A stretch of DNA of 58,580 bases. It comes from Fibrobacter intestinalis (GTDB taxonomy: Bacteria; Fibrobacterota; Fibrobacteria; Fibrobacterales; Fibrobacteraceae). The stretch lies in contig NZ_FUWU01000014.1 in assembly GCF_900167415.1 (NCBI RefSeq), positions 4,125 through 62,704 of the forward strand, in the 5' to 3' direction. The notes below the pieces were generated by a model, which saw nothing but the letters and a program-made list of their open reading frames with translations, did not search any database and was not told where the DNA came from. Position 1 is the stretch's first letter. Each line of letters opens with the position of its first letter. Shown piece after piece: positions 6,764 through 25,026 of this stretch. The position numbers were made by a program, and so were the translations under genes.

Positions 6764-8569
6764 TTGAAAACGAACGAAAAAAAAACTTTGGCAACCATTT
6801 GGTCGCATTTGATGTTCGGCGTTCTTCTCTGCGCCGCATTCGCCTCTGCGCAAAGCTTTGAATCCATTGATCTCAACGGGATGCAGCCGCCCAAAGTGGA
6901 AATCCGTTATCCCGAAGAAACGACCCGGGAAGGCTCTCTCGTTTCCGTCCGAATCACCATTCCCGACGGTTGGCACGTCAATGCAAACATTGTCGCGGAC
7001 GATTTTTTAAAGCCGTCCACCCTGAATATTCAAGCGCGCGGCATCCAATTTGGCGATCCCATTTGGCCGGAACCCATCAAAGAATACAGCGAAGCGCTGG
7101 ATTTGGAAAATCTGGTTTTCAAAGGAACGCTGACCGTTCAAATCCCCATCCAAAAACTTGAAGCCGATTACGACACGAGCACGACCAATCTGGATTTCGG
7201 ATACCAGGCTTGCAGCAACATTTGCCTAGCTCCGCAAACCGTCCACGCCTCTCTGGAGCTGAAATCCTTGGGACAGAGTTCTCTTTCTTCCCCCGCGCTC
7301 GACTCCCCTTCAAAAAAAAACGATTCTGAATCCCTAACGCTGCTGTTGCTGCTCGCCTTTGTCGGCGGGCTGATTCTGAATTTGATGCCCTGCGTTCTGC
7401 CCGTCCTCTTTTTAAAGCTCTTCAGCCTGATCCGCAACGCCCACGAAACCCGCTCACGGCTTTGGCTTCTTACAGGCGCGCTCGTTCTGGGCGTACTGAT
7501 TTCCTTTTGGATTCTCGCCGGAATCGTCGCCCTCATCAAAGCGGGCAGCGGAAACGCGGGCTGGGGTTTTCAATTCCAGAACCCGGGATTCATCGCCTTT
7601 ATGGTTGTTTTACTCTCCGCATTCGCCATGAACCTGTTCGGCGCCTTTGAAATTTTCCTTCCCGGAAAAACGCTGACCCGCATGGATGCGGCTACCCGCA
7701 AGGAAGGTTTAGCCGGAGCCTTCTTCAGCGGCATTCTCATGGTCCTTTTGAGCACGCCCTGTTCCGCGCCCTTTTTGGGAACGGCAATGGGCTTCGCCTT
7801 TACGCAGAGCACGTCCATTCTATTCCTGTTCTTCACCGTCGCCGCCATCGGACTCGCTTTCCCCTACATTCTGGTCGCCATCTTTCCCCAGATTCGCAAA
7901 ATTCTCCCGAAACCCGGAAACTGGATGACGATTTTCCAAAAAATTTTGGGAGTCTTTCTGCTGGGAACGGCTATCTGGCTCGTCTGGGTCGCATTCCAAA
8001 TGATCGGTTCGTCCGGAGCCGCCATCATTCTCGGCTTTGGCGTGATCGCCATCCTTTTCTCCCTGGCTTTCGGCAAAATCGCTAGACCCGACAAGCCCTT
8101 TGTTCGAGAACCCGTTTTGTTAATCGCATTCTGTCTGATTCTTCTAGCCGGGTGGTTCTTGTTCGGAAAAGTCGCCATCGAAACCGCTATCAAAGAAAAA
8201 GCTCGCATTGCAGCAGAAGAAACTCTGAGTGATGACGGCTGGTATCGCTATTCCCAAAAGACTTTTGATGCGTTTGCCAACGAGAACCGGGTAATCTTTG
8301 TAGACGTGACGGCGGACTGGTGCCTGACTTGCAAGACCAACGAAGCGGTCGTTCTTTCGAGCGAAACGGTCCAAGGACTTTTCGCCCAAGCCGACGCGAT
8401 TTTAATGCGGGCGGACTATACGCTCGAATCGCCGGAAGTCACCGAGCTGCTTCGGAAACTGGGTCGCAGCGGCGTTCCCGCCTATGCTGTTTACAAACCG
8501 CAGACCGCTTCGTGGAATGTCCTGCCAGAAATCCTGACCACGGATGCCATCGAGAAAGCGCTGAAGTAA
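6764..8569 (+). CDS. dsbD: DsbD-like thiol:disulfide interchange protein
   Basis: This inner-membrane electron conduit carries reducing equivalents from cytoplasmic thioredoxin to periplasmic partners. The start is a TTG at 6764, supported by AGGAG seven bases upstream and a clean signal peptide (LMFGVLLCAAFASA). Domains in order: an N-terminal DsbD-alpha-like domain (about 35-165, Cys150/Cys154); a multi-helix membrane domain (about 185-455) with Cys210 (LMPCVLP) and Cys333 (STPCSAP); and a C-terminal thioredoxin fold with the WCLTCK active site at Cys520/Cys523. All three cysteine pairs are present, so it should be functional. The 601-residue length is typical. It diverges from the sigma factor operon across a short gap. 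Confidence 0.93.
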   Translation: MKTNEKKTLATIWSHLMFGVLLCAAFASAQSFESIDLNGMQPPKVEIRYPEETTREGSLVSVRITIPDGWHVNANIVADDFLKPSTLNIQARGIQFGDPIWPEPIKEYSEALDLENLVFKGTLTVQIPIQKLEADYDTSTTNLDFGYQACSNICLAPQTVHASLELKSLGQSSLSSPALDSPSKKNDSESLTLLLLLAFVGGLILNLMPCVLPVLFLKLFSLIRNAHETRSRLWLLTGALVLGVLISFWILAGIVALIKAGSGNAGWGFQFQNPGFIAFMVVLLSAFAMNLFGAFEIFLPGKTLTRMDAATRKEGLAGAFFSGILMVLLSTPCSAPFLGTAMGFAFTQSTSILFLFFTVAAIGLAFPYILVAIFPQIRKILPKPGNWMTIFQKILGVFLLGTAIWLVWVAFQMIGSSGAAIILGFGVIAILFSLAFGKIARPDKPFVREPVLLIAFCLILLAGWFLFGKVAIETAIKEKARIAAEETLSDDGWYRYSQKTFDAFANENRVIFVDVTADWCLTCKTNEAVVLSSETVQGLFAQADAILMRADYTLESPEVTELLRKLGRSGVPAYAVYKPQTASWNVLPEILTTDAIEKALK

Positions 8570-17461: not shown

Positions 17462-17462
17462 A

Positions 17463-17579
17463 ATGAACAAGAATCATATCGCTAAAGCCATTTTTAGAGG
17501 CACTCTTTTGGGGAATATGCGCTATTTTCACTTGCAAAAATTGCGATTCATCTTTGCAAGAAATTGGGTTTGCTCATGA
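17463..17579 (+). other. Short degenerate reading frame after the LamG gene
   Basis: An ATG one base after the LamG stop opens 38 codons. A shift of one base part-way through yields a lipoprotein-like continuation (AIFTCKNCDSS). It may be the broken start of another lipoprotein whose 3' part was lost. Evidence is thin. Confidence 0.2.
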
Positions 17580-17887
17580 AACAACGGAACTATCCGCGAG
17601 TTTTACCCAAGGAACAACTTGAGCTTCCGTTAAGGGCATTTCCTTTGCTCCGGCATATACGACGGTCCTCTGTTCGGGTGAAAAACCAGAAATTTTTCCC
17701 CAGAAATTCAAGTTGTCCAGAAATTCACGGTTGAAAGTTTCGCCTGACTTGATTTCGTATGCGAAGGGCATTCCATTTCTATCTTGAATCAGATCCACCT
17801 CGTGACCAACATTGTCTCGCCAAAAAGAAAGCCGAGGCTCCCTGCCCTGATTCAAGGATTTTTTTCTTGTATTTCACGTGGGATCAT
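17574..17887 (-). pseudogene. Internally deleted DUF4143-type AAA ATPase remnant
   Basis: Residues reading NQGREPRLSFWRDNVGHEVD and YEIKSGETF match the C-terminal DUF4143 part of a widespread family of ATPases of about 400 residues. Only about 93 residues remain. The frame has a stop six codons upstream. In another frame an ATG at 17887 gives MIPREIQEKNP, which resembles the family's N-terminus. The whole AAA core is therefore missing, consistent with one internal deletion. Not expected to function. Confidence 0.6.
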
Positions 17888-18038
17888 GGGATACTGCCTT
17901 CAGACTTTTTTTTACAAATACAAAATCAAACTTTAAAATTGTAAAGTCTGTACATTGTAACCACTAAGTCGTTTTCTTTTTTGGGGAAAGGGGCATCGTA
18001 AAAAAATGAACGAAAACACGCTTTTTTGAAGAAAATGC

Positions 18039-18067
18039 TTGACAATTAGCCATTTACACAATATTAA
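18039..18067 (+). promoter_or_regulatory. Sigma-70-type promoter of the 18-25 kb operon
   Basis: A perfect -35 box TTGACA (18039-18044), a 17-bp spacer and a -10-like TATTAA (18062-18067) lie about 40 bp before the first start codon of the beta-helix protein gene. Confidence 0.6.
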
Positions 18068-18109
18068 AATATTGCTAAATTATTACAACTAAAAAAACAA
18101 GAGGATGCA

Positions 18110-21100
18110 TTGAAATATCTATTTTACTTCTTGGCGTTATCACGTCTATTTTTGTTGAATAGCGCTTTTGCCCTTGATTTTCCCTATTCGGAATGGAATT
18201 TCGCAAATTATAATGGTGCCGCCGCCACATTCCATAACGGATTTGTCACGGTAACCAATAGCGGCTCGGACTATTGGCACGTTCAACTGACCCGCAGTAA
18301 TATTGAACTACGGGAGAATCATACATACGAAGTTAAGTTTTTTCTGCAAGGGGTAACTAATCGCCGTTATGTGGAAGTCCGTATCGGGCGTGACGGCTTT
18401 CCCTACGATGCTTTCGCCGAATTTGGTGAAGTCGCCGCAACAGTAAATGGTCGAATAATTACAAAAATTTTTACAATGCAATCGGGCAATGTCAACAATG
18501 CTCGATTTGAATTCAATCTCGGGAAACATTCTGGAACAGTCTATCTATCCGACATTAGCCTGAATTGCCTCGACTGCAGTTCAGGTCAAAATCCCGGTGA
18601 AGACAATTCTTCGGCAACATTCGCTAGCGATTGGGGGTATGTCGTCGTTGCAGATACAATCGACTTTAGAGATAATTCGATGGCCTTGGGCGGTGTATTC
18701 GGACAAAACGTCGAACTGGGGGCCGATACGAAAATCTACGGCGATGTCGATGTGTCAAATTCCTGTTTCTTGCGAGAGCGCGCAAACATCAGTGGAAACT
18801 TGCATTATTCGTCTCCCTGCAATGAACAGAACAACGTTTTCGCCAAGACAAAGAGTACAGCAACGTTGTCAAAGCCGGTTGTCGAAATTTCAAATATCAC
18901 TGTAGGCGTTTCGCCTCTTTCTGTTGGGCTTGACGAAACGAAGGTCCTTCCGCCCGGCAATTATGGAACTTTTTATGTCAACGCGAGAGCCAAAGTTCAT
19001 TTTTCCGCTGGTACTTATACTTTCCAAAACATCTTTACAGAACCAGATGTGGAATTTTCTTTTGACTTGACATCCGGCCCGATTTCAATAGGCGTATTGG
19101 GCAACGTTCGCTTTGGCGATCGCAACACGTTTTCCATCGCAAATGGTAATCCAAGCGAAATTCTATGGAATATCGCCGGTGAGAATATCGACATAGGAAC
19201 TGACGGCCTGTATTTCGGAAAATTTGTCGCCCCGGTCGCTTTTGTACGCATTCCATCGCGTTCCCATCTTGTCGGTGCAGTATATGCCCGCAAATTTCAA
19301 ATAGAGCCGCAATCAACTATTTCCCGGGAACCACGAGCTAACGAAATTTCTCATAGTGAAGAACATTTCGGCCCGTTCTTTGAACCAGGAATTTTCCGTT
19401 ATGCCTCGCAATTACCGCTTTCTACATCCGCTATTGAAATGTTTATTTATGCGGATAGTGCCCAAGTCAAGATAAATGGCGGGGCGTCAAAAGTCGTTGA
19501 TCTTTCCTCTTCCAGCGAAACTGTCAACATATCACTTAAGCAAAAGCAGATTTCGGGCTTTCCTTCAGAAGCTTTTAGCAGCAATTATATATTCAGCTTC
19601 ACCAAGAGCGCAAATTACCGTATCTACTGGAATCCACAAACCCAGTGTAAGCAAGGGTGCAATGGGAAGACCGCCGCAACGGCAGTTGGCGACTTTGCTT
19701 CCGCTCTAGAAATGGCCAAGACAACGGGCCAAGAAATCAACATGGCAGGCGGCATTTGGAACGTGACGGAAAACTTCACAGACGGCGTTGTTCCCTGGAA
19801 AGTTGGATTCGAACTAGTTGGAAATACTCAAAATCTCCAGGATTTGACTTCTGAAAACCTTCTTCCTCTAATAAACCTTGGCAATGCTTTCCACATAGAA
19901 GTGGAAGGTCGTTCACCCCGGTCATTTACGGGATTTCGCATTGCAAATGGCTTTAATGCTGGAAATGGCGGTGCGATTAATTCTTATCATTCTTCGAAAT
20001 TGCAAATTTCGCAAATCATGCTTCAGAATAATATTTCAAAAGCAAATGGTGGTGCAATTTCTTTTTCGGGAGATTCGTTAATTGCGTCTCAAGTGTATCT
20101 GTCAAAGAATCATGCCGACAGATTTGGAGGAGGACTATTCGTTCAGGGGAAATCATCTCTCCAAAACATATTCTTCATACAGAACTCATCTAAAGAAGTC
20201 GGGTCGGCCTTATATACAAGCAACAATTGTTCCATTCAAAACAGCGTACTTTCTCAAAATACAACAAATAGGCATTCTAGCATTGCTCTAGATTCAACCG
20301 GCAGCATTGATATTTGGAATGCGACATTATTTAAAAATTCCGGCGCACAAAATGGACCCGAAATCGTCGGACAAGGAAATATATGGAATAGCATAATATG
20401 GAAAAACCAAAATGGTTCCATACAAGACAGTTTATCCTCTAATATTTCTGTCAATCACTCATTGTCGTCTAAATCTTATAGCGGCTCTTCAAATTATACA
20501 ACAAATCCGATATTTAAAAATGAACTTATTCCCGAGGGGTCAAATCATTACATCGGAGTCGATGCCGGGCTTGCTATAGACGTGTCGTCTCCTGTTGCGG
20601 ACAAGGGAAATAAAGAACATTCTTTATCAACGGATATTTTGGGAATCGAACGAGGCGATTCCTTTCCATTTGGAGCTTATGGAATTTACGTTACGAATGT
20701 TCCCGTCCAATACGGATTATGGTATGACGGAGAATTTCATGATGTAGGAAACACTAGGCCAGTGTTTGAAAATTTTCCATCAATGGCACACATTGAATTT
20801 GCGGGACATAGCGCATACGGCCGGGTGATGAAAGCCTTGGTAAAAAAACATGAAAAAACGAAAATTTCCAAAGCTATAGTTCGAGTGACCTTAATGGACT
20901 CCACTGGAACAAAGTACCCCGATGCAGAATCCATAGATATTCCATTTTACCGCAGTGGATCGGAAAACGGGAAATACGTATTTATGTCCCTTACAAAAAG
21001 TTCTACAGAAGAAGGTTTCGATGTTGAAAAACATGGCCACTATGTACTGTTTTCCCGAAAAACTGAGGACCAAGGCTTTTATGATGAATTTGTTATCATC

Positions 21101-21151
21101 CATGTAAAGAAAAATAGCGACCGCCTAAAGTATGAGGTTGTAAAATGGTAA
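18110..21151 (+). CDS. Large secreted protein: CBM-like domain plus right-handed beta-helix
   Basis: This 1013-residue exported protein starts with a TTG preceded by AAGAGGA, at the head of a signal peptide (FLLNSAFALD). Residues about 25-150 look like a CBM4/9-type jelly roll (ENHTYEVKFFLQG, RYVEVRIGRDG, ARFEFNLGKHSGTVYLSDIS). Residues about 165-400 are beta-rich and bactofilin-like (LGGVFGQNVELGADTKIYGD, GNLHYSSPC). Residues about 610-760 form a parallel beta-helix (GGAINSYHSSKLQISQIML, GGGLFVQGKSSLQNIFFIQN). No catalytic motif was recognised, and it lacks the sorting tail seen elsewhere in the window. It overlaps the next gene by 7 bp. The base composition is AT-richer than that of its neighbours. 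Confidence 0.7.
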   Translation: MKYLFYFLALSRLFLLNSAFALDFPYSEWNFANYNGAAATFHNGFVTVTNSGSDYWHVQLTRSNIELRENHTYEVKFFLQGVTNRRYVEVRIGRDGFPYDAFAEFGEVAATVNGRIITKIFTMQSGNVNNARFEFNLGKHSGTVYLSDISLNCLDCSSGQNPGEDNSSATFASDWGYVVVADTIDFRDNSMALGGVFGQNVELGADTKIYGDVDVSNSCFLRERANISGNLHYSSPCNEQNNVFAKTKSTATLSKPVVEISNITVGVSPLSVGLDETKVLPPGNYGTFYVNARAKVHFSAGTYTFQNIFTEPDVEFSFDLTSGPISIGVLGNVRFGDRNTFSIANGNPSEILWNIAGENIDIGTDGLYFGKFVAPVAFVRIPSRSHLVGAVYARKFQIEPQSTISREPRANEISHSEEHFGPFFEPGIFRYASQLPLSTSAIEMFIYADSAQVKINGGASKVVDLSSSSETVNISLKQKQISGFPSEAFSSNYIFSFTKSANYRIYWNPQTQCKQGCNGKTAATAVGDFASALEMAKTTGQEINMAGGIWNVTENFTDGVVPWKVGFELVGNTQNLQDLTSENLLPLINLGNAFHIEVEGRSPRSFTGFRIANGFNAGNGGAINSYHSSKLQISQIMLQNNISKANGGAISFSGDSLIASQVYLSKNHADRFGGGLFVQGKSSLQNIFFIQNSSKEVGSALYTSNNCSIQNSVLSQNTTNRHSSIALDSTGSIDIWNATLFKNSGAQNGPEIVGQGNIWNSIIWKNQNGSIQDSLSSNISVNHSLSSKSYSGSSNYTTNPIFKNELIPEGSNHYIGVDAGLAIDVSSPVADKGNKEHSLSTDILGIERGDSFPFGAYGIYVTNVPVQYGLWYDGEFHDVGNTRPVFENFPSMAHIEFAGHSAYGRVMKALVKKHEKTKISKAIVRVTLMDSTGTKYPDAESIDIPFYRSGSENGKYVFMSLTKSSTEEGFDVEKHGHYVLFSRKTEDQGFYDEFVIIHVKKNSDRLKYEVVKW

Positions 21152-22704
21152 TAATTTTCCTTATTCCCCTTACGCTTTGTCTGCTTGTTGGATGCTCAGG
21201 GAAACCTTCTCCTGAAATAGACCCTCCAGGTTTTGAGTTTATAGACGCGAATCTTTCATGGCCAATAATTCCTAACACGGAAATAGAAGGATTTTCGTGG
21301 ACGACAGCAGGCTTCCTGCCTCATGAAGAACATCTGTATGGATTTGACAAACATCCGAAACCCAATCAGTATGTACCTGAGGATTCGATAGTGCATATTG
21401 CCGTTCTCGCCAATGCTGAAGGCATCGTAAATGCATTTGTTGAACCGCTTGTTTATGAAAGTTCTACTGGTTACGTATATGGATTATGTGATTTAGAATC
21501 TGGGAAATTGATTCGTGAATTACAGCCAGATAGCAAAGGAAATGACGAATATATTTTTTATGGGAGTGATGCCGGAAAAGACGATTCTATCGGATTATGC
21601 AGAAAATTGGAAAGTAGCAGTGAAGACAGGTATATCATTTATGAAAAACTAAAAATTCATTCGTACCTTCCCTCCCAAAAAGAAATAGCCTTATTTATTC
21701 TTGGAAACGGAAAGAATGTAAGTGATTTTGTTCAAAGCGTCCAATTTTGGGAGGATGCGGTTCCTAAAGTTTACAACAAAAATATCCATTATCCCCATCT
21801 CGCTTATATTTATCAAAGCATTCCTCAAAATGTTACCTTATACAAAGACGAAGTCGGTGATGTGATAGACTCCACTGCAAAATCAACCAATTATTTAAAA
21901 ATTCATGTTTTAAATACAGATTCGTCTTGTTATGAATCAATAAAGGATGATATAGACAATGCCGTTGAGGAAATTCGGAATTTTTCGCAAGATAAAAATA
22001 TTTCTCGCACAATTCTTTCTTTGACATGGCCTACAAGGAAAATTTGGACACTTAAATACGATGACAATGGATTTGTACAGCTTTGTGGCACACCTTCTGA
22101 TTCTCCAGAGAATGCATCTGAAATTCAACTAATTGCAGCAATAAATGGAATCGAATACACTCCATATTTTGTCCATAAAAAAGGAAATTATTGGGTTGCG
22201 CTGAAAAAGGGGGAAAATAACCAAAATATAGAAGACACTTTGACCAGGGAAAATTTGAATATAGAACAAATGGTATTTATTGAAAGTGGCCATTCACAAC
22301 CTATAGACAATCCTTATCTAGGTTACCATTTATCGTCATCAACAGCAAAAGCAGTTACGAGATTTGTAAGGAAAAATGACTTATCATCTCTATATGATTA
22401 CGATTTTGCATACATTCTTTTACCTTGGAGAAACGAGCGAACGGGAAGAACGCTTCTACACGAAATGGGTCATGCATTTGGATTAATAGACGTGGATGAT
22501 ACATTAACTCACGATTCCAAATCAAATCAAGGAAACTTAATGCATTGGAACGACGATCGAAATGGAGTTATATTGAGAAATCGACCTATGAATGCTAGAC
22601 ACATGGATACAGCGACTGAACGTCAATGGGATTGCCTACATAGAATCAATCCGACAAAAAGTTGCGGCGACCCGAGTATTTTACAGTTCAATTATGGAGA
22701 ATAG
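21145..22704 (+). CDS. Lipoprotein with metzincin-like zinc protease motif
   Basis: This 519-residue protein has a lipoprotein signal (LTLCLLVGC, Cys17). The C-terminal part carries HEMGHAFGLID at 439-449, which is the HExxHxxGxxD zinc-binding signature (ligands His439, His443, Asp449; catalytic Glu440). NLMHW follows about 18 residues on and could be the Met-turn. The rest of the sequence is not recognised. It starts inside the end of the beta-helix gene (7-bp overlap), so the two are coupled. The substrate is unknown; a co-encoded surface protein is a natural candidate (inference). Confidence 0.75.
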   Translation: MVIIFLIPLTLCLLVGCSGKPSPEIDPPGFEFIDANLSWPIIPNTEIEGFSWTTAGFLPHEEHLYGFDKHPKPNQYVPEDSIVHIAVLANAEGIVNAFVEPLVYESSTGYVYGLCDLESGKLIRELQPDSKGNDEYIFYGSDAGKDDSIGLCRKLESSSEDRYIIYEKLKIHSYLPSQKEIALFILGNGKNVSDFVQSVQFWEDAVPKVYNKNIHYPHLAYIYQSIPQNVTLYKDEVGDVIDSTAKSTNYLKIHVLNTDSSCYESIKDDIDNAVEEIRNFSQDKNISRTILSLTWPTRKIWTLKYDDNGFVQLCGTPSDSPENASEIQLIAAINGIEYTPYFVHKKGNYWVALKKGENNQNIEDTLTRENLNIEQMVFIESGHSQPIDNPYLGYHLSSSTAKAVTRFVRKNDLSSLYDYDFAYILLPWRNERTGRTLLHEMGHAFGLIDVDDTLTHDSKSNQGNLMHWNDDRNGVILRNRPMNARHMDTATERQWDCLHRINPTKSCGDPSILQFNYGE

Positions 22705-22707
22705 CAA

Positions 22708-23934
22708 ATGAACAACAAAAAAATCGTTTTTATTGCAATGTGTTTGATGGCTATTTTTAACTATGGCATGGAAATTGTCGATGCGACTGGGAAAAAAATC
22801 ATGAATACGGAAAACGTTGACCATGCAGAAGAAATCATTCGAAGTTTGAGAAAAAACGATCCGTTAAACAGATATTACTATCGAAACTCTATAACAAACA
22901 AAAAAAATTTTCCATCAGCTCCAAATGCCGTTTTCGAATATGGAAAAGCCCGATATATAGAAACTGCAAGGAATCAAAAATACAAAATCTGTTTAGAAAA
23001 TGGTGAAAGAGGCTTTTGGGAAGGTCTGGTTCCATTTCAGCTCACTAAAGACAACTGTCTTTTATTGACAACCCCTAATCGAACGGGAAGTTTATTATTT
23101 GTTTTCTTCAACGCTTCAACCCCATCGGACAGCGTCTGGATTCTGAACAATCAAAAACTGATTGATTTGTCGAAAGAGACGCATTTGATATGGAGCATAG
23201 ATTCTATTATAGGGCCAGAGTACAAAAGACGAGTTTACGGCTCTTATAAAGAAACACGTCTAAACAAAATCCTCGTTGTTGACCGAACGGAAGCAACTGT
23301 CGGGGAAGTAAAATTTCTATGCGACTATTTTGGAACATTTTATAAACCATCTAATTTATGGTATCCAGACAGCAATCCCTTGAACCATCCCAATTTACCG
23401 CAGGATCCGAGTTATGCCATCGACTCCGATTATGCGAACAATAGAAGCAAGTTTGAGGGCTTTGAAATTGCGTCCCGTGCAAACGGAGCCGACACGACAA
23501 AAAACGGCTATAGATTACCGACTCATGACGAATGGGTTGCCCTACAAAGAGGCGGTTCAAAAAAAGATTATTATTGGGGAAACGAAACGGATTCTTTAAC
23601 CATATCTCAATATGAATGGTATAAACCGAGAAAAGAAAGAGTTCATGAAGTGGGCTTGCTAAAGCCAAATCCTTATGGGTTATACGACGTTATGGGAAAT
23701 GCTACAGAATCCATTTTGCATCAGGGGCGCGAATGCTTAAGCTCTGATGAAAGCTCTAACGAGTGTTGGATGAAAAATAATCTGATGCAGCACGAAGCCG
23801 AGGAATTTTGTTACACCCATATCAAATACAAAGCGGATAAAGAAAAAACGGTTGTCAAAGAATGTGATTTACGCTATAAAAAAAATCCGTTTAGGGGATT
23901 TAGATTGGTCCGACAGATTTTTGTAAACGATTAA
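22708..23934 (+). CDS. SUMF1/formylglycine-generating-enzyme-like secreted protein
   Basis: This 408-residue protein has a probable N-terminal signal or anchor (IVFIAMCLMAIFNYG). Residues about 225-405 show the SUMF1-fold hallmarks: FEIASRANGAD, NGYRLPTHDEWVALQRGG, YYWGN, GLYDVMGNATES and RGFRLVRQ. Many bacterial members of this fold are not sulfatase activators and act as structural or binding domains, so the role here is open. No sulfatase is adjacent. GGAG lies 9 bases before the ATG. It is the third gene of the operon starting at 18110, three bases after the protease gene. Confidence 0.75.
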   Translation: MNNKKIVFIAMCLMAIFNYGMEIVDATGKKIMNTENVDHAEEIIRSLRKNDPLNRYYYRNSITNKKNFPSAPNAVFEYGKARYIETARNQKYKICLENGERGFWEGLVPFQLTKDNCLLLTTPNRTGSLLFVFFNASTPSDSVWILNNQKLIDLSKETHLIWSIDSIIGPEYKRRVYGSYKETRLNKILVVDRTEATVGEVKFLCDYFGTFYKPSNLWYPDSNPLNHPNLPQDPSYAIDSDYANNRSKFEGFEIASRANGADTTKNGYRLPTHDEWVALQRGGSKKDYYWGNETDSLTISQYEWYKPRKERVHEVGLLKPNPYGLYDVMGNATESILHQGRECLSSDESSNECWMKNNLMQHEAEEFCYTHIKYKADKEKTVVKECDLRYKKNPFRGFRLVRQIFVND

Positions 23935-23953
23935 CACGGGATGCAATGGGGAA

Positions 23954-24136
23954 ATGTGGCCTCCGCCCGAAACAATAAAAACTTTCGGCCCTCATCACTT
24001 GACGGTAAATCATGTTCTTGTTAGATTATATGAATCCACAAGTCAGGATCCGGGAACCCCACCGATACAATCAACGAAGATCAAATACGATCCTAAACTG
24101 GATGATGTTTTATGGCCGGAAGATTATTTGCCTTGA
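23954..24136 (+). CDS. Small ORF, hypothetical
   Basis: A 60-codon frame starts at an ATG preceded by GGGG, 20 bp after the SUMF1-like gene. It overlaps the next gene by 25 bp. The product is rich in Pro and Thr, with no signal peptide and no known domain. It could be a fragment of a decayed gene. Confidence 0.25.
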   Translation: MWPPPETIKTFGPHHLTVNHVLVRLYESTSQDPGTPPIQSTKIKYDPKLDDVLWPEDYLP

Positions 24137-24812
24137 TATTTTTTCTGTGTTGCTTGGCAACGAACGCTCTTGCCTTCAGGGACAAGGGCGTTCCTCTAGA
24201 ATATGCTTCCGTCCAATTCGTTCGGGAAAAAGTCGACACCTTGCAATTGGAAATCCGGACAAGGCAAGGAAATCTGGATTTTGTTCGACTGGCAGGAAAG
24301 AACATCCATTTTCAAGCAATGACAGCACCGTCCAGTTCTTCCGGCAATTCATGCTTCACGGCTTTGAAATAGGGACAAAGCCTAAGGAGAATGGCGGCGG
24401 GATTTACATCCACTTGCGCGCCCCGACAAATTACGAAAGGTTTGCCTTGGCCATAGACGACAAGGGAAAAACGACGATAGAAAAAGTGTTGTCCGTTTTT
24501 TTTCACAAGAAAGGGGATTCCGTAAAACGGAAGGATTACAGACCGAAAACAATTTATCCCGAAAACGGCGAGTTGCAAATGATTTCGATGCACTTGGTCT
24601 ATGATTTGGGAATAGTCCTTGGAAAAATGGAACTCTGGTTGGATTCCAACAATCTACTGGAAGTAAACGCGTTCAATCGGGTAGATGGAATAGAGATCAA
24701 AGAAAAATCCGAAAGCATTACTTCTGTTTTTATGTACGAAATAAAACGAAACGCTCTTTACCTGTTCAAATTGCCCAAAGAAAACATTCGATTGCCCGTG
24801 CAGTGGCAATGA
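24112..24812 (+). pseudogene. Frameshifted secreted protein gene
   Basis: An ATG at 24112 gives a clear signal peptide (LFALIFFLCCLATNALA) and about 65 further residues, then the frame closes at 24372. The next frame continues with protein-like sequence (FFRQFMLHGFEIGT, YERFALAIDDKGK, LFKLPKENIRLPVQW) to 24812. The two join if one T is added to the TTTT run at 24309-24312. A single-base deletion, or a sequencing error there, therefore explains the break. The intact product would have about 233 residues; no domain was recognised. Confidence 0.6.
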
Positions 24813-24828
24813 AAGCGAGTGAAACGGG

Positions 24829-24945
24829 TTTCGTTATTGCGAGGATGGTTCGACTAGTTTGGCAAGCGGGCGGCGTCATTGCGAGGAGGGGGCATAGTCC
24901 CCGACGCGGCAATCTTGTCTGCGGGAGAAGATTGCTTCTACACTT
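24829..24945. repeat. CATTGCGAG-type dispersed repeats
   Basis: Two head-to-tail pieces are seen (TTATTGCGAGGATGG and CGTCATTGCGAGGAGG), followed by GCGGCAATCTTGTC and AAGATTGCTTC. This is the same family as at 35.6 and 58.4 kb. The gap 24813-25026 shows no gene. Confidence 0.6.
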
Positions 24946-25026
24946 CGAGTATAACTCCACTAAGTCAATAAATTGACAAGTGTCGTATAACCCCTTTGGG
25001 GTTCGGGGTGACGAAATTCCTGGCCT

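What the first reader, a model, noticed from the sequence alone, without database searches (positions are those of the whole stretch)
18039..24812. AT-rich surface operon: beta-helix protein, metzincin-like lipoprotein, SUMF1-like protein
Three overlapping or touching genes after one promoter encode a large CBM/beta-helix protein, a lipoprotein with HExxHxxGxxD, and a SUMF1-fold protein. A fourth gene is frameshifted. The composition differs from the flanks, and decayed genes lie on both sides, which suggests acquisition by transfer. A protease and a possible modifying enzyme encoded with a surface protein could form a processing or display system. I know of no described case.
Basis: partly seen in the sequence, partly recalled or inferred. 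Interest (0 to 1): 0.5.

Follow-up and report, generated by a model that had tools for sequence, protein, structure and literature searches.

The report
Cassette-shuffled surface protease operon
Gut bacteria of the Fibrobacter family carry a three-gene, probably cell-surface module whose first half stays similar while its second half, a likely protease and a partner protein, has been swapped between lineages like interchangeable cassettes, as in known bacterial rivalry and surface-variation systems.

Summary
The three genes are real: A (18110-21151), B (21145-22704), C (22708-23934). A fourth is frameshifted and unrelated. The order A-B-C recurs in 29 mapped loci, in 21 of 167 Fibrobacterota genomes plus two database bins: a conserved operon.

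The main new finding is mosaicism. The 5' part of A (CBM, middle domain; promoter too in the closest loci) is conserved; the 3' part (end of A, B, C) is extremely divergent. Silent (four-fold) sites break abruptly too (e.g. .81 to .16.97 to .29), so this is recombination, not only selection. A's C-terminal domain, B and C diversify together, independently of A's N-terminus. Truncated B-ends with C genes lie elsewhere as orphan cassettes; two have C 91-92% identical to operon cassettes of other genomes.

B keeps a zincin motif in 27 of 27 copies. C has the FGE/C-type-lectin fold without FGE's signature and is probably not an enzyme; its best PDB sequence match is a Treponema variable protein. 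In three loci C is fused to A's C-terminal domain.

Best reading: a polymorphic surface complex re-assorted by recombination. Function is unproven; variable recognition plus proteolysis is favoured, effector-immunity the main rival.

The parts
18039..18109 (+). Probable promoter and ribosome-binding site of the operon (TTTACA-17-TAAATT at 18053-18081; caagagg before TTG 18110)
   Evidence: The window shares ttaaaatattgcta and caagagg with loci L024, L071, L074. Promoter assignment is inference.
18110..21151 (+). Gene A, 1013 aa: signal peptide, CBM_4_9-like domain, DUF7305/bactofilin-like middle (below Pfam cut-off), PMP-repeat beta-helix, C-terminal domain
18110..19819 (+). 5' part of gene A (about codons 1-570): the conserved half of the mosaic
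   Evidence: Median pairwise identity .69 (residues 21-170) and .59 (171-500) against .34 for residues 810-1013. Breaks near codons 570-630 in several pairs, window-L074 at 582 and window-L069 at 630
20711..21148 (+). A_C, C-terminal domain of A (about residues 868-1013): co-diversifies with B and C; fused to C or free-standing elsewhere
   Evidence: no Pfam family for residues 869-1013
21145..22704 (+). Gene B, 519 aa lipoprotein with zincin motif HEMGHAFGLID and NLM Met-turn-like motif
22459..22542 (+). Catalytic motif region of B (HExxHxxxxxD to NLM, residues 439-466); most orphan B-ends in other genomes begin near this point
   Evidence: 27 of 27 B proteins have both motifs; orphans
22708..23934 (+). 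Gene C, 408 aa, signal peptide, FGE/C-type-lectin fold without FGE catalytic signature
24112..24812 (+). Frameshifted fourth gene (signal peptide in one frame, remainder in another); probably not part of the system
   Evidence: relatives in G139, G026, G137 at 58-60%
17462..25026 (.). Segment absent from the same place in same-genus genome G070: probable insertion carrying the operon

Best explanation
A-B-C is a polymorphic surface module. A is exported and forms a beta-helix stalk with a constant, carbohydrate-binding base. A's C-terminal domain (A_C), the lipoprotein zincin protease B and the FGE/C-type-lectin-fold protein C form a matched variable tip. C docks on A_C and acts as a ligand-binding or docking part, not as an enzyme; B cuts whatever the tip engages (a competitor, host or phage surface protein). 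New tips are acquired by homologous recombination: crossovers in the conserved part of A, at the beta-helix/A_C junction, at the A/B boundary or near B's conserved HExxH codons bring in [A_C]-B-C or [B end]-C cassettes, and old cassettes remain as orphans. Shown: gene order, motifs, mosaic breaks at silent sites, co-diversification, orphan cassettes matching other genomes' cassettes, C-A_C fusions. Inferred: surface location, docking, proteolysis, target, crossover route, selective reason.
For: A-B-C order in 29 mapped loci; in the 26, A-B gaps are -14 to 14 bases and B-C gaps -89 to 15, except L018 (874). Median pairwise identity falls from .69 (A_N) to .34 (A_C).17-.28 (B).20-.28 (C) (24 loci). 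Spearman A_N vs B_cat .06 (165 of 500 permutations as high) and vs C_FGE .02 (224 of 500), but A_C vs B_cat .69 and B_cat vs C_FGE .66 (0 of 500); same picture in the 14 loci with full A, A_C vs C .83-.86. Third-position identity within A has a break beyond all 60 shuffles in 11 of 14 chosen pairs. Control at sites selection on protein cannot move: four-fold identity L024-L071 .81 to .16, L015-L082 (two copies in G137) .97 to .29, L067-L068 (G100) .91 to .33, L016-L019 (G128) .81 to .30; L071-L074 A .83 then B .38. Orphans: B-end 92% + C 91% of the L024 cassette in G148; C 92% and B-end 83% of the L071 cassette in G137. Two contigs of G137 share a 60-base exact end overlap, placing the orphan array after an A-B-C operon. 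C-A_C fusions in three loci without B. HExxH(5)D and N[LIV]M in 27 of 27 B. C profile: T. denticola variable protein 2y3c E 1.2e-20, FGE entries 2e-8 or weaker; VIA Z 12.6 for 2y3c, 10.9 for FGE.
Against: No experiment shows secretion, surface location, proteolysis or binding. B's model is poor (pLDDT 59), so the zincin fold rests on motifs. Correlation tests are not corrected for phylogeny beyond label permutation; A_N is available in few loci (105 pairs). Breakpoint pairs were hand-picked for similar A, and the tests use the best split, so their p-values are too small. For the window itself the break is weaker (four-fold .42 to .23 with L074.38 to .23 with L069). Three of 14 pairs show no significant break within A. 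A 5' identity exceeds that of a housekeeping gene in only 16 of 55 pairs. The window genome holds one B and no orphan B-end was found in it; divergent C relatives were not searched there.
Confidence: 0.5

Rival explanations
1. Effector-immunity system (like Myxococcus SitBAI or Neisseria MafB/MafI): B is a polymorphic lipoprotein effector that damages non-kin cells, C is its cognate periplasmic/surface immunity protein, and A is the accessory or delivery protein.
For: Gene layout upstream gene-lipoprotein-partner with overlap, as reported for sitB-sitA-sitI (passages). Orphan [B end]-C cassettes, like the mafB-CT/mafI cassettes (passages). In all five orphan loci B is truncated, while six C ORFs of 423-475 aa are intact. 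Extra C genes without a B stand beside operons (L019, L066, L072, L138).
Against: C tracks A_C (.83-.86) at least as well as B's catalytic end (.65-.73). C fused to A_C occurs without any B. B is variable along its whole length, not only at a C-terminal toxin domain. C carries a signal peptide. No PADLOC match for A, B or C. Some C genes are broken in three B-less loci (L135-L137).
Confidence: 0.27
2. One reading: B processes A (maturation or release) and C modifies a sulfatase-like or other surface substrate, a processing system.
For: One operon, all three with N-terminal export signals; protease motif intact.
Against: FGE signature absent in 27 of 27 C. A's constant part does not co-vary with B. 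Swapped cassettes are not expected for a maturation enzyme.
Confidence: 0.08
3. Ordinary fast-evolving secreted polysaccharide-binding operon; the mosaic is an artefact of assembling repeated A genes from metagenomes.
For: Contigs do break inside A in G100, G110 and G137. Many relatives are fragmented genomes. A has a CBM, and a BD-FAE esterase gene stands in the 3 loci whose gene was tested (L017, L022, L023).
Against: A clear break also appears between L075 and L078, which lie in contigs of 110 kb and 564 kb. Orphan cassettes match other genomes' cassettes at 91-92% in C, which misassembly within one sample does not give.
Confidence: 0.12

Closest known systems
MafB/MafI genomic islands of Neisseria (PMC4287609, passages read) and CDI/Rhs polymorphic toxins (PMC3482391, passages)
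   Same: Constant 5' part, variable 3' part, partner gene directly downstream, orphan C-terminal cassettes with partner genes, evidence of recombination between cassette and full gene
   Different: Variable part spans the end of one gene and two more; the hydrolase is a separate full-length lipoprotein; partner has an FGE fold and a signal peptide; no toxicity or immunity shown
SitBAI lipoprotein toxins of Myxococcus (PMC5562445, passages read)
   Same: Operon of an upstream gene overlapping a polymorphic OM lipoprotein gene, followed by a partner gene; multiple alleles
   Different: SitA C-terminal domains are reported as nuclease toxins acting in the cytoplasm; here B has a zincin motif. No TraA-type exchange was looked for
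DGR variable proteins with the FGE-type C-type lectin fold (TvpA; PMC6328139 passages)
   Same: C's best PDB sequence match is T. denticola variable protein 1; scaffold tolerant of massive variation
   Different: No template repeat found: C's DNA occurs once in the genome, and the genome's one DGR has a repeat unrelated to C. Variation comes by cassette exchange
PorK/GldK of T9SS (PMC12421860 passages)
   Same: FGE fold without the catalytic cysteines, used as a docking hub in an outer-membrane complex
   Different: C is hypervariable and stands in another operon; C's match to the NCBIfam GldK model is far below its cut-off (18 bits against 350)

Membership tests
Formylglycine-generating enzyme (SUMF1) | FGE fold | tested here: met
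   FGE-sulfatase E 2.4e-12; VIA Z 10.9 to 1z70, 12.8 to CarF
Formylglycine-generating enzyme (SUMF1) | Catalytic cysteine pair with GGS signature (motif recalled; two catalytic cysteines named in PMC12421860) | tested here: not met
   0 of 27 C have the GGS motif; 1 of 27 (L017) has CxxxxC. Motif search, not structural superposition; one of the 27 (L082) is cut at 130 aa
DGR variable protein | FGE-type C-type lectin fold | tested here: met
   2y3c E 1.2e-20, Z 12.6
DGR variable protein | Template repeat with adenine-directed differences and a nearby reverse transcriptase | tested here: not met
   C DNA has one copy in its genome; the one RVT_1 match is on another contig and its repeat shares only 10-13 base chance matches with the C region
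Metzincin/zincin metalloprotease | HExxHxxxxxD/H and Met-turn motif (motifs recalled) | tested here: met
   27 of 27 B
Metzincin/zincin metalloprotease | Zincin fold | tested here: inconclusive
   Model pLDDT 59, under 50 for residues 467-519; no zincin among the listed matches; Pfam Zincin_1 only E 0.1
Polymorphic toxin/immunity systems | Constant N-terminal and variable C-terminal part by recombination | tested here: met
Polymorphic toxin/immunity systems | Orphan C-terminal cassettes with partner genes | tested here: met
   L021, L022, L079, L080, L081
Polymorphic toxin/immunity systems | Toxicity and cognate immunity | not testable with these tools
   Needs co-culture or expression assays
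T9SS cargo | Recognised C-terminal secretion domain | tested here: inconclusive
   No T9SS cargo C-terminal domain matched A, B or C in NCBIfam; A_C is the last domain wherever mapped but matches no Pfam family

The most novel reading that the evidence does not exclude
A kin- or rival-discrimination system of Fibrobacteraceae in which a polymorphic outer-membrane lipoprotein zincin is paired with a repurposed FGE/C-type-lectin-fold protein as cognate partner or immunity protein, displayed on a constant carbohydrate-binding stalk, and re-assorted between species as cassettes.
Probability: 0.25. Interest if true: 0.8.

Novelty: new variant of a known kind. Interest (0 to 1): 0.6.

Why it matters
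Fibrobacter and its relatives are major fibre degraders of herbivore guts (general knowledge), yet how their strains compete or vary their surfaces is little known. A cassette-exchanged surface protease module would be a concrete, testable handle, and would show the FGE/C-type-lectin scaffold being diversified by recombination rather than by retroelement mutagenesis. That the same genome also carries a clear retroelement of that second kind makes a direct comparison possible.

Tried and rejected
Single-sequence search for B in genome contigs found no relative; an alignment of A, through one peptide pattern, found 12 loci, so spread outside the phylum is poorly tested. Mobile carriage: no relative of A confirmed in viral contigs or plasmids. 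Defence-system families: none for A, B, C and one esterase. DGR origin of C's variation: rejected. Fourth gene as a partner: rejected. TIGR02147 and LamG upstream genes as part of the system: both stand without it in G070; a TIGR02147-lipoprotein pair also stands near a short A in L034/L133 (one contig), but similarity to the window's TIGR02147 is 25% and LamG did not match. Fold search with the B model gave mainly Ig-like matches to residues 52-178, of little use. An HK nucleotide column was wrong (strand ignored) and was redone. One search failed by a syntax error and was rerun. The third-position test does not by itself exclude selection, since differing amino acids randomise third positions; one search repeats it on codons with the same amino acid and on four-fold sites.

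Counts to read with care. The 26 loci include L023/L028 (100% over the part compared) and L069/L082 (B 100%). One search used 24 loci (L023 and L082 dropped). One search used the 14 with full A. One search used 14 pairs chosen for similar A, twelve of them (window-L015 and L070-L075, which had no break, left out). Breakpoint codon numbers for partial A genes are approximate. The bins labelled Bacteroidales (L024) and archaeon (L028) are probably mislabelled or mis-binned; not tested. A itself matched 113 of 167 genomes at E 0.001, but most of those are single-domain matches, not counted as the system.
Full report
OBSERVATION. The window contains gene A (18110-21151, TTG start, 1013 aa), gene B (21145-22704, 519 aa, overlapping A by 7 bases) and gene C (22708-23934, 408 aa) on the + strand. 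A has a signal peptide, a CBM_4_9 match (E 1.7e-7) and PMP/POMP repeats; C matches FGE-sulfatase (E 2.4e-12); B has no significant family but has a lipobox (LVGC) and HEMGHAFGLID. A fourth gene is broken by a frameshift (24112-24812). GC is 42.6, 36.9 and 38.2 for A, B, C against 46.6-50.9 for four flanking genes.

ACQUISITION. In same-genus genome G070 the window's left flank (TIGR02147 and LamG genes) and right flank (tsaA-like and DEAD helicase genes) are neighbours, with about 50 bases between the LamG and tsaA stop codons; in the window 7,565 bases lie there, holding a DUF4143 remnant, A, B, C and the broken gene. None of the five other same-genus genomes has a match to B; for A, four have none and G030 only weak partial matches. 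Only G070 gives an empty site; in the fetched stretches of the other four the left-flank genes were not found, in two of them because the contig ends at the helicase.

CONSERVATION. A single-sequence search found B in 6 of 150 genomes; a profile of nine B proteins found matches in 22 of 167 Fibrobacterota genomes, some of them fragments. Mapping of fetched loci with profiles of A, B and C gave 26 A-B-C loci and three more (L138, L139, L140): 29 loci, in 21 of the 167 genomes plus two database bins (L024, L028). In several, A is cut by the contig end. Gene order is constant. Exceptions seen: L018 has a Fib_succ_major lipoprotein between B and C; L077 has a B-C pair without A followed by A-B-C; the short A gene (CBM plus A_C, 337 aa) of L034/L133 has no B before the contig ends; L035 has A_C alone. 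After C some loci carry a BD-FAE esterase or Fib_succ_major proteins.

MOSAIC STRUCTURE. Across 24 loci the median pairwise identity is .69 for A residues 21-170.59 for 171-500.47 for 501-809.34 for 810-1013.17-.28 for parts of B and .20-.28 for parts of C. DNA alignments in 150-base windows show this as a step: L024-L071 mostly 91-99% (one window 83%) from just before A to about base 1650, then mostly 45-57%; L071-L074 81-99% through A, then 29-71%; L016-L019 89-99% over most of the first part, then mostly 43-80%; L075-L078 80-99% to about base 2100, then 29-81%; L069-L071 is a weaker, patchy case (53-83% within A). The best single break in third-position identity within A exceeded all 60 shuffles in 11 of 14 chosen pairs. 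Because differing amino acids alone lower third-position identity, I repeated this for 12 pairs on codons with the same amino acid and on four-fold degenerate sites. Four-fold identity falls at the break from .81 to .16 (L024-L071, codon 570).97 to .29 (L015-L082, two copies in genome G137, codon 622).91 to .33 (L067-L068, genome G100, codon 571).81 to .30 (L016-L019, genome G128, codon 850).72 to .36 (L075-L078, codon 700).88 to .51 (L020-L005, genome G072); in L071-L074 it is .83 in A and .38 in B. Protein-level selection cannot do this, so sequences of different ages have been joined. For the window the step is smaller.42 to .23 with L074 (codon 582).38 to .23 with L069 (codon 630). The window's own GC3 falls from 44.6 (A codons 1-570) to 33.8 (rest of A) and 28.7 (B), with C at 37.7. 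In 16 of 55 genome pairs the 5' part of A is more similar than a DEAD helicase gene (L071-L074 .93 against .77), which points to transfer; in 39 it is not.

CO-DIVERSIFICATION. Identity of A's N-terminus does not predict identity of B or C (Spearman .06 and .02; 165 and 224 of 500 permutations as high). A_C, B and C predict each other (A_C with B_cat .69, B_cat with C_FGE .66; 0 of 500). In the 14 loci with complete A the same holds, with A_C against C at .83-.86 and B_cat against C at .65-.73. A housekeeping protein's identity correlates with none of the segments above .29 (12 loci). In three loci without B, C and A_C are one protein (632, 624 and 697 aa; C first, A_C last), and free-standing 182-aa A_C proteins with a lipoprotein-type signal stand in four such loci. 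This is fusion-type evidence that A_C and C work together.

ORPHAN CASSETTES. Five loci hold truncated B-ends followed by C without A: L021, L022, L079, L080, L081. The L021 orphan in G148 is 92% (73 residues of B) and 91% (430 residues of C) identical to the operon cassette of L024, from another bin. In G137, L022 contains a C 92% and a B-end 83% identical to those of L071, from another genus of the family. L022 and L082 are contigs of G137 that share a 60-base exact end overlap, which places this array directly after an A-B-C operon (inference). Two of the six B-ends lack HExxH; six C ORFs in these loci are intact (423-475 aa), two others are cut by contig ends. dN/dS of two orphan C genes against their operon relatives is .28 and .17 (the B-ends .22 and .11), so these sequences have been under constraint on at least one side. 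In B-less loci L135, L136 and L137 some C genes are broken.

PROTEIN FUNCTION. B: HExxH, D five residues later, and N[LIV]M follow in 27 of 27 proteins, so B is very likely an active zincin; its AlphaFold model is poor (pLDDT 58.8) and does not show the fold. C: a profile matches T. denticola variable protein 1 (2y3c) at E 1.2e-20, 5aoh (CarF) at 3e-11 and FGE entries at 2e-8 or weaker. The model (pLDDT 65.8) aligns with CarF Z 12.8, 2y3c 12.6, PorK 11.8, PvdO 11.6 and FGE 10.9 (values within 1 are ties). FGE's GGS motif is absent in 27 of 27 and CxxxxC occurs in 1 of 27, so C is probably a binding or docking protein, as reported for PorK (PMC12421860, passages) and for C-type-lectin variable proteins (PMC6328139, passages).

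EXPLANATION. I commit to a polymorphic surface module with a constant stalk base and an exchangeable tip (A_C, B, C), exchanged by homologous recombination; overall confidence .5. The genetic part (conserved operon, mosaic, cassettes) I hold at about .85. The function, variable recognition plus proteolysis, is inference. The main rival is an effector-immunity system like SitBAI (PMC5562445, passages) or MafB/MafI (PMC4287609, passages): the truncated-B/intact-C orphans favour it, the C-A_C fusions without B speak against C being only B's immunity protein.

NOVELTY. Nine searches of the open-licence library listed no title or abstract start describing this operon; subscription papers are mostly not held, and only passages or outlines of six papers were read. 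It resembles known polymorphic systems in genetics and differs in parts, hence 'new variant of a known kind'.

Noticed in passing
G000 contig C92 (L131: 6459-7163, 8156-8354, 8365-9537): A clear diversity-generating retroelement in the window's own genome: a gene resembling Fib_succ_major proteins (by eye) whose 3' end (6956-7154) is 85% identical to a template repeat (8156-8354) beside a reverse transcriptase; 27 of 29 differences fall on template adenines.
   Followed up: partly
window 17574-17855 (-): Remnant of a protein with a DUF4143 C-terminal end (E 5e-5, below cut-off), just left of the operon and inside the inserted segment.
   Followed up: partly
window 24112-24812 (+): Frameshifted secreted protein gene; relatives at 58-60% in open frames of 236-284 aa in three genomes; in G026 and G137 on other contigs than the A-B-C operon.
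   Followed up: partly
L134, L135, L136, L143 (G136:C1, G097:C22, G105:C33, G052:C2): B-less clusters of A_C-only lipoproteins and C or C-A_C fusion lipoproteins, some with similar neighbours in different genomes; perhaps a simpler ancestral or derived form of the system.
   Followed up: partly
L017, L022, L023 after gene C: A BD-FAE-type esterase gene (about 340 aa) follows C directly, in L022 within an orphan cassette array.
   Followed up: no
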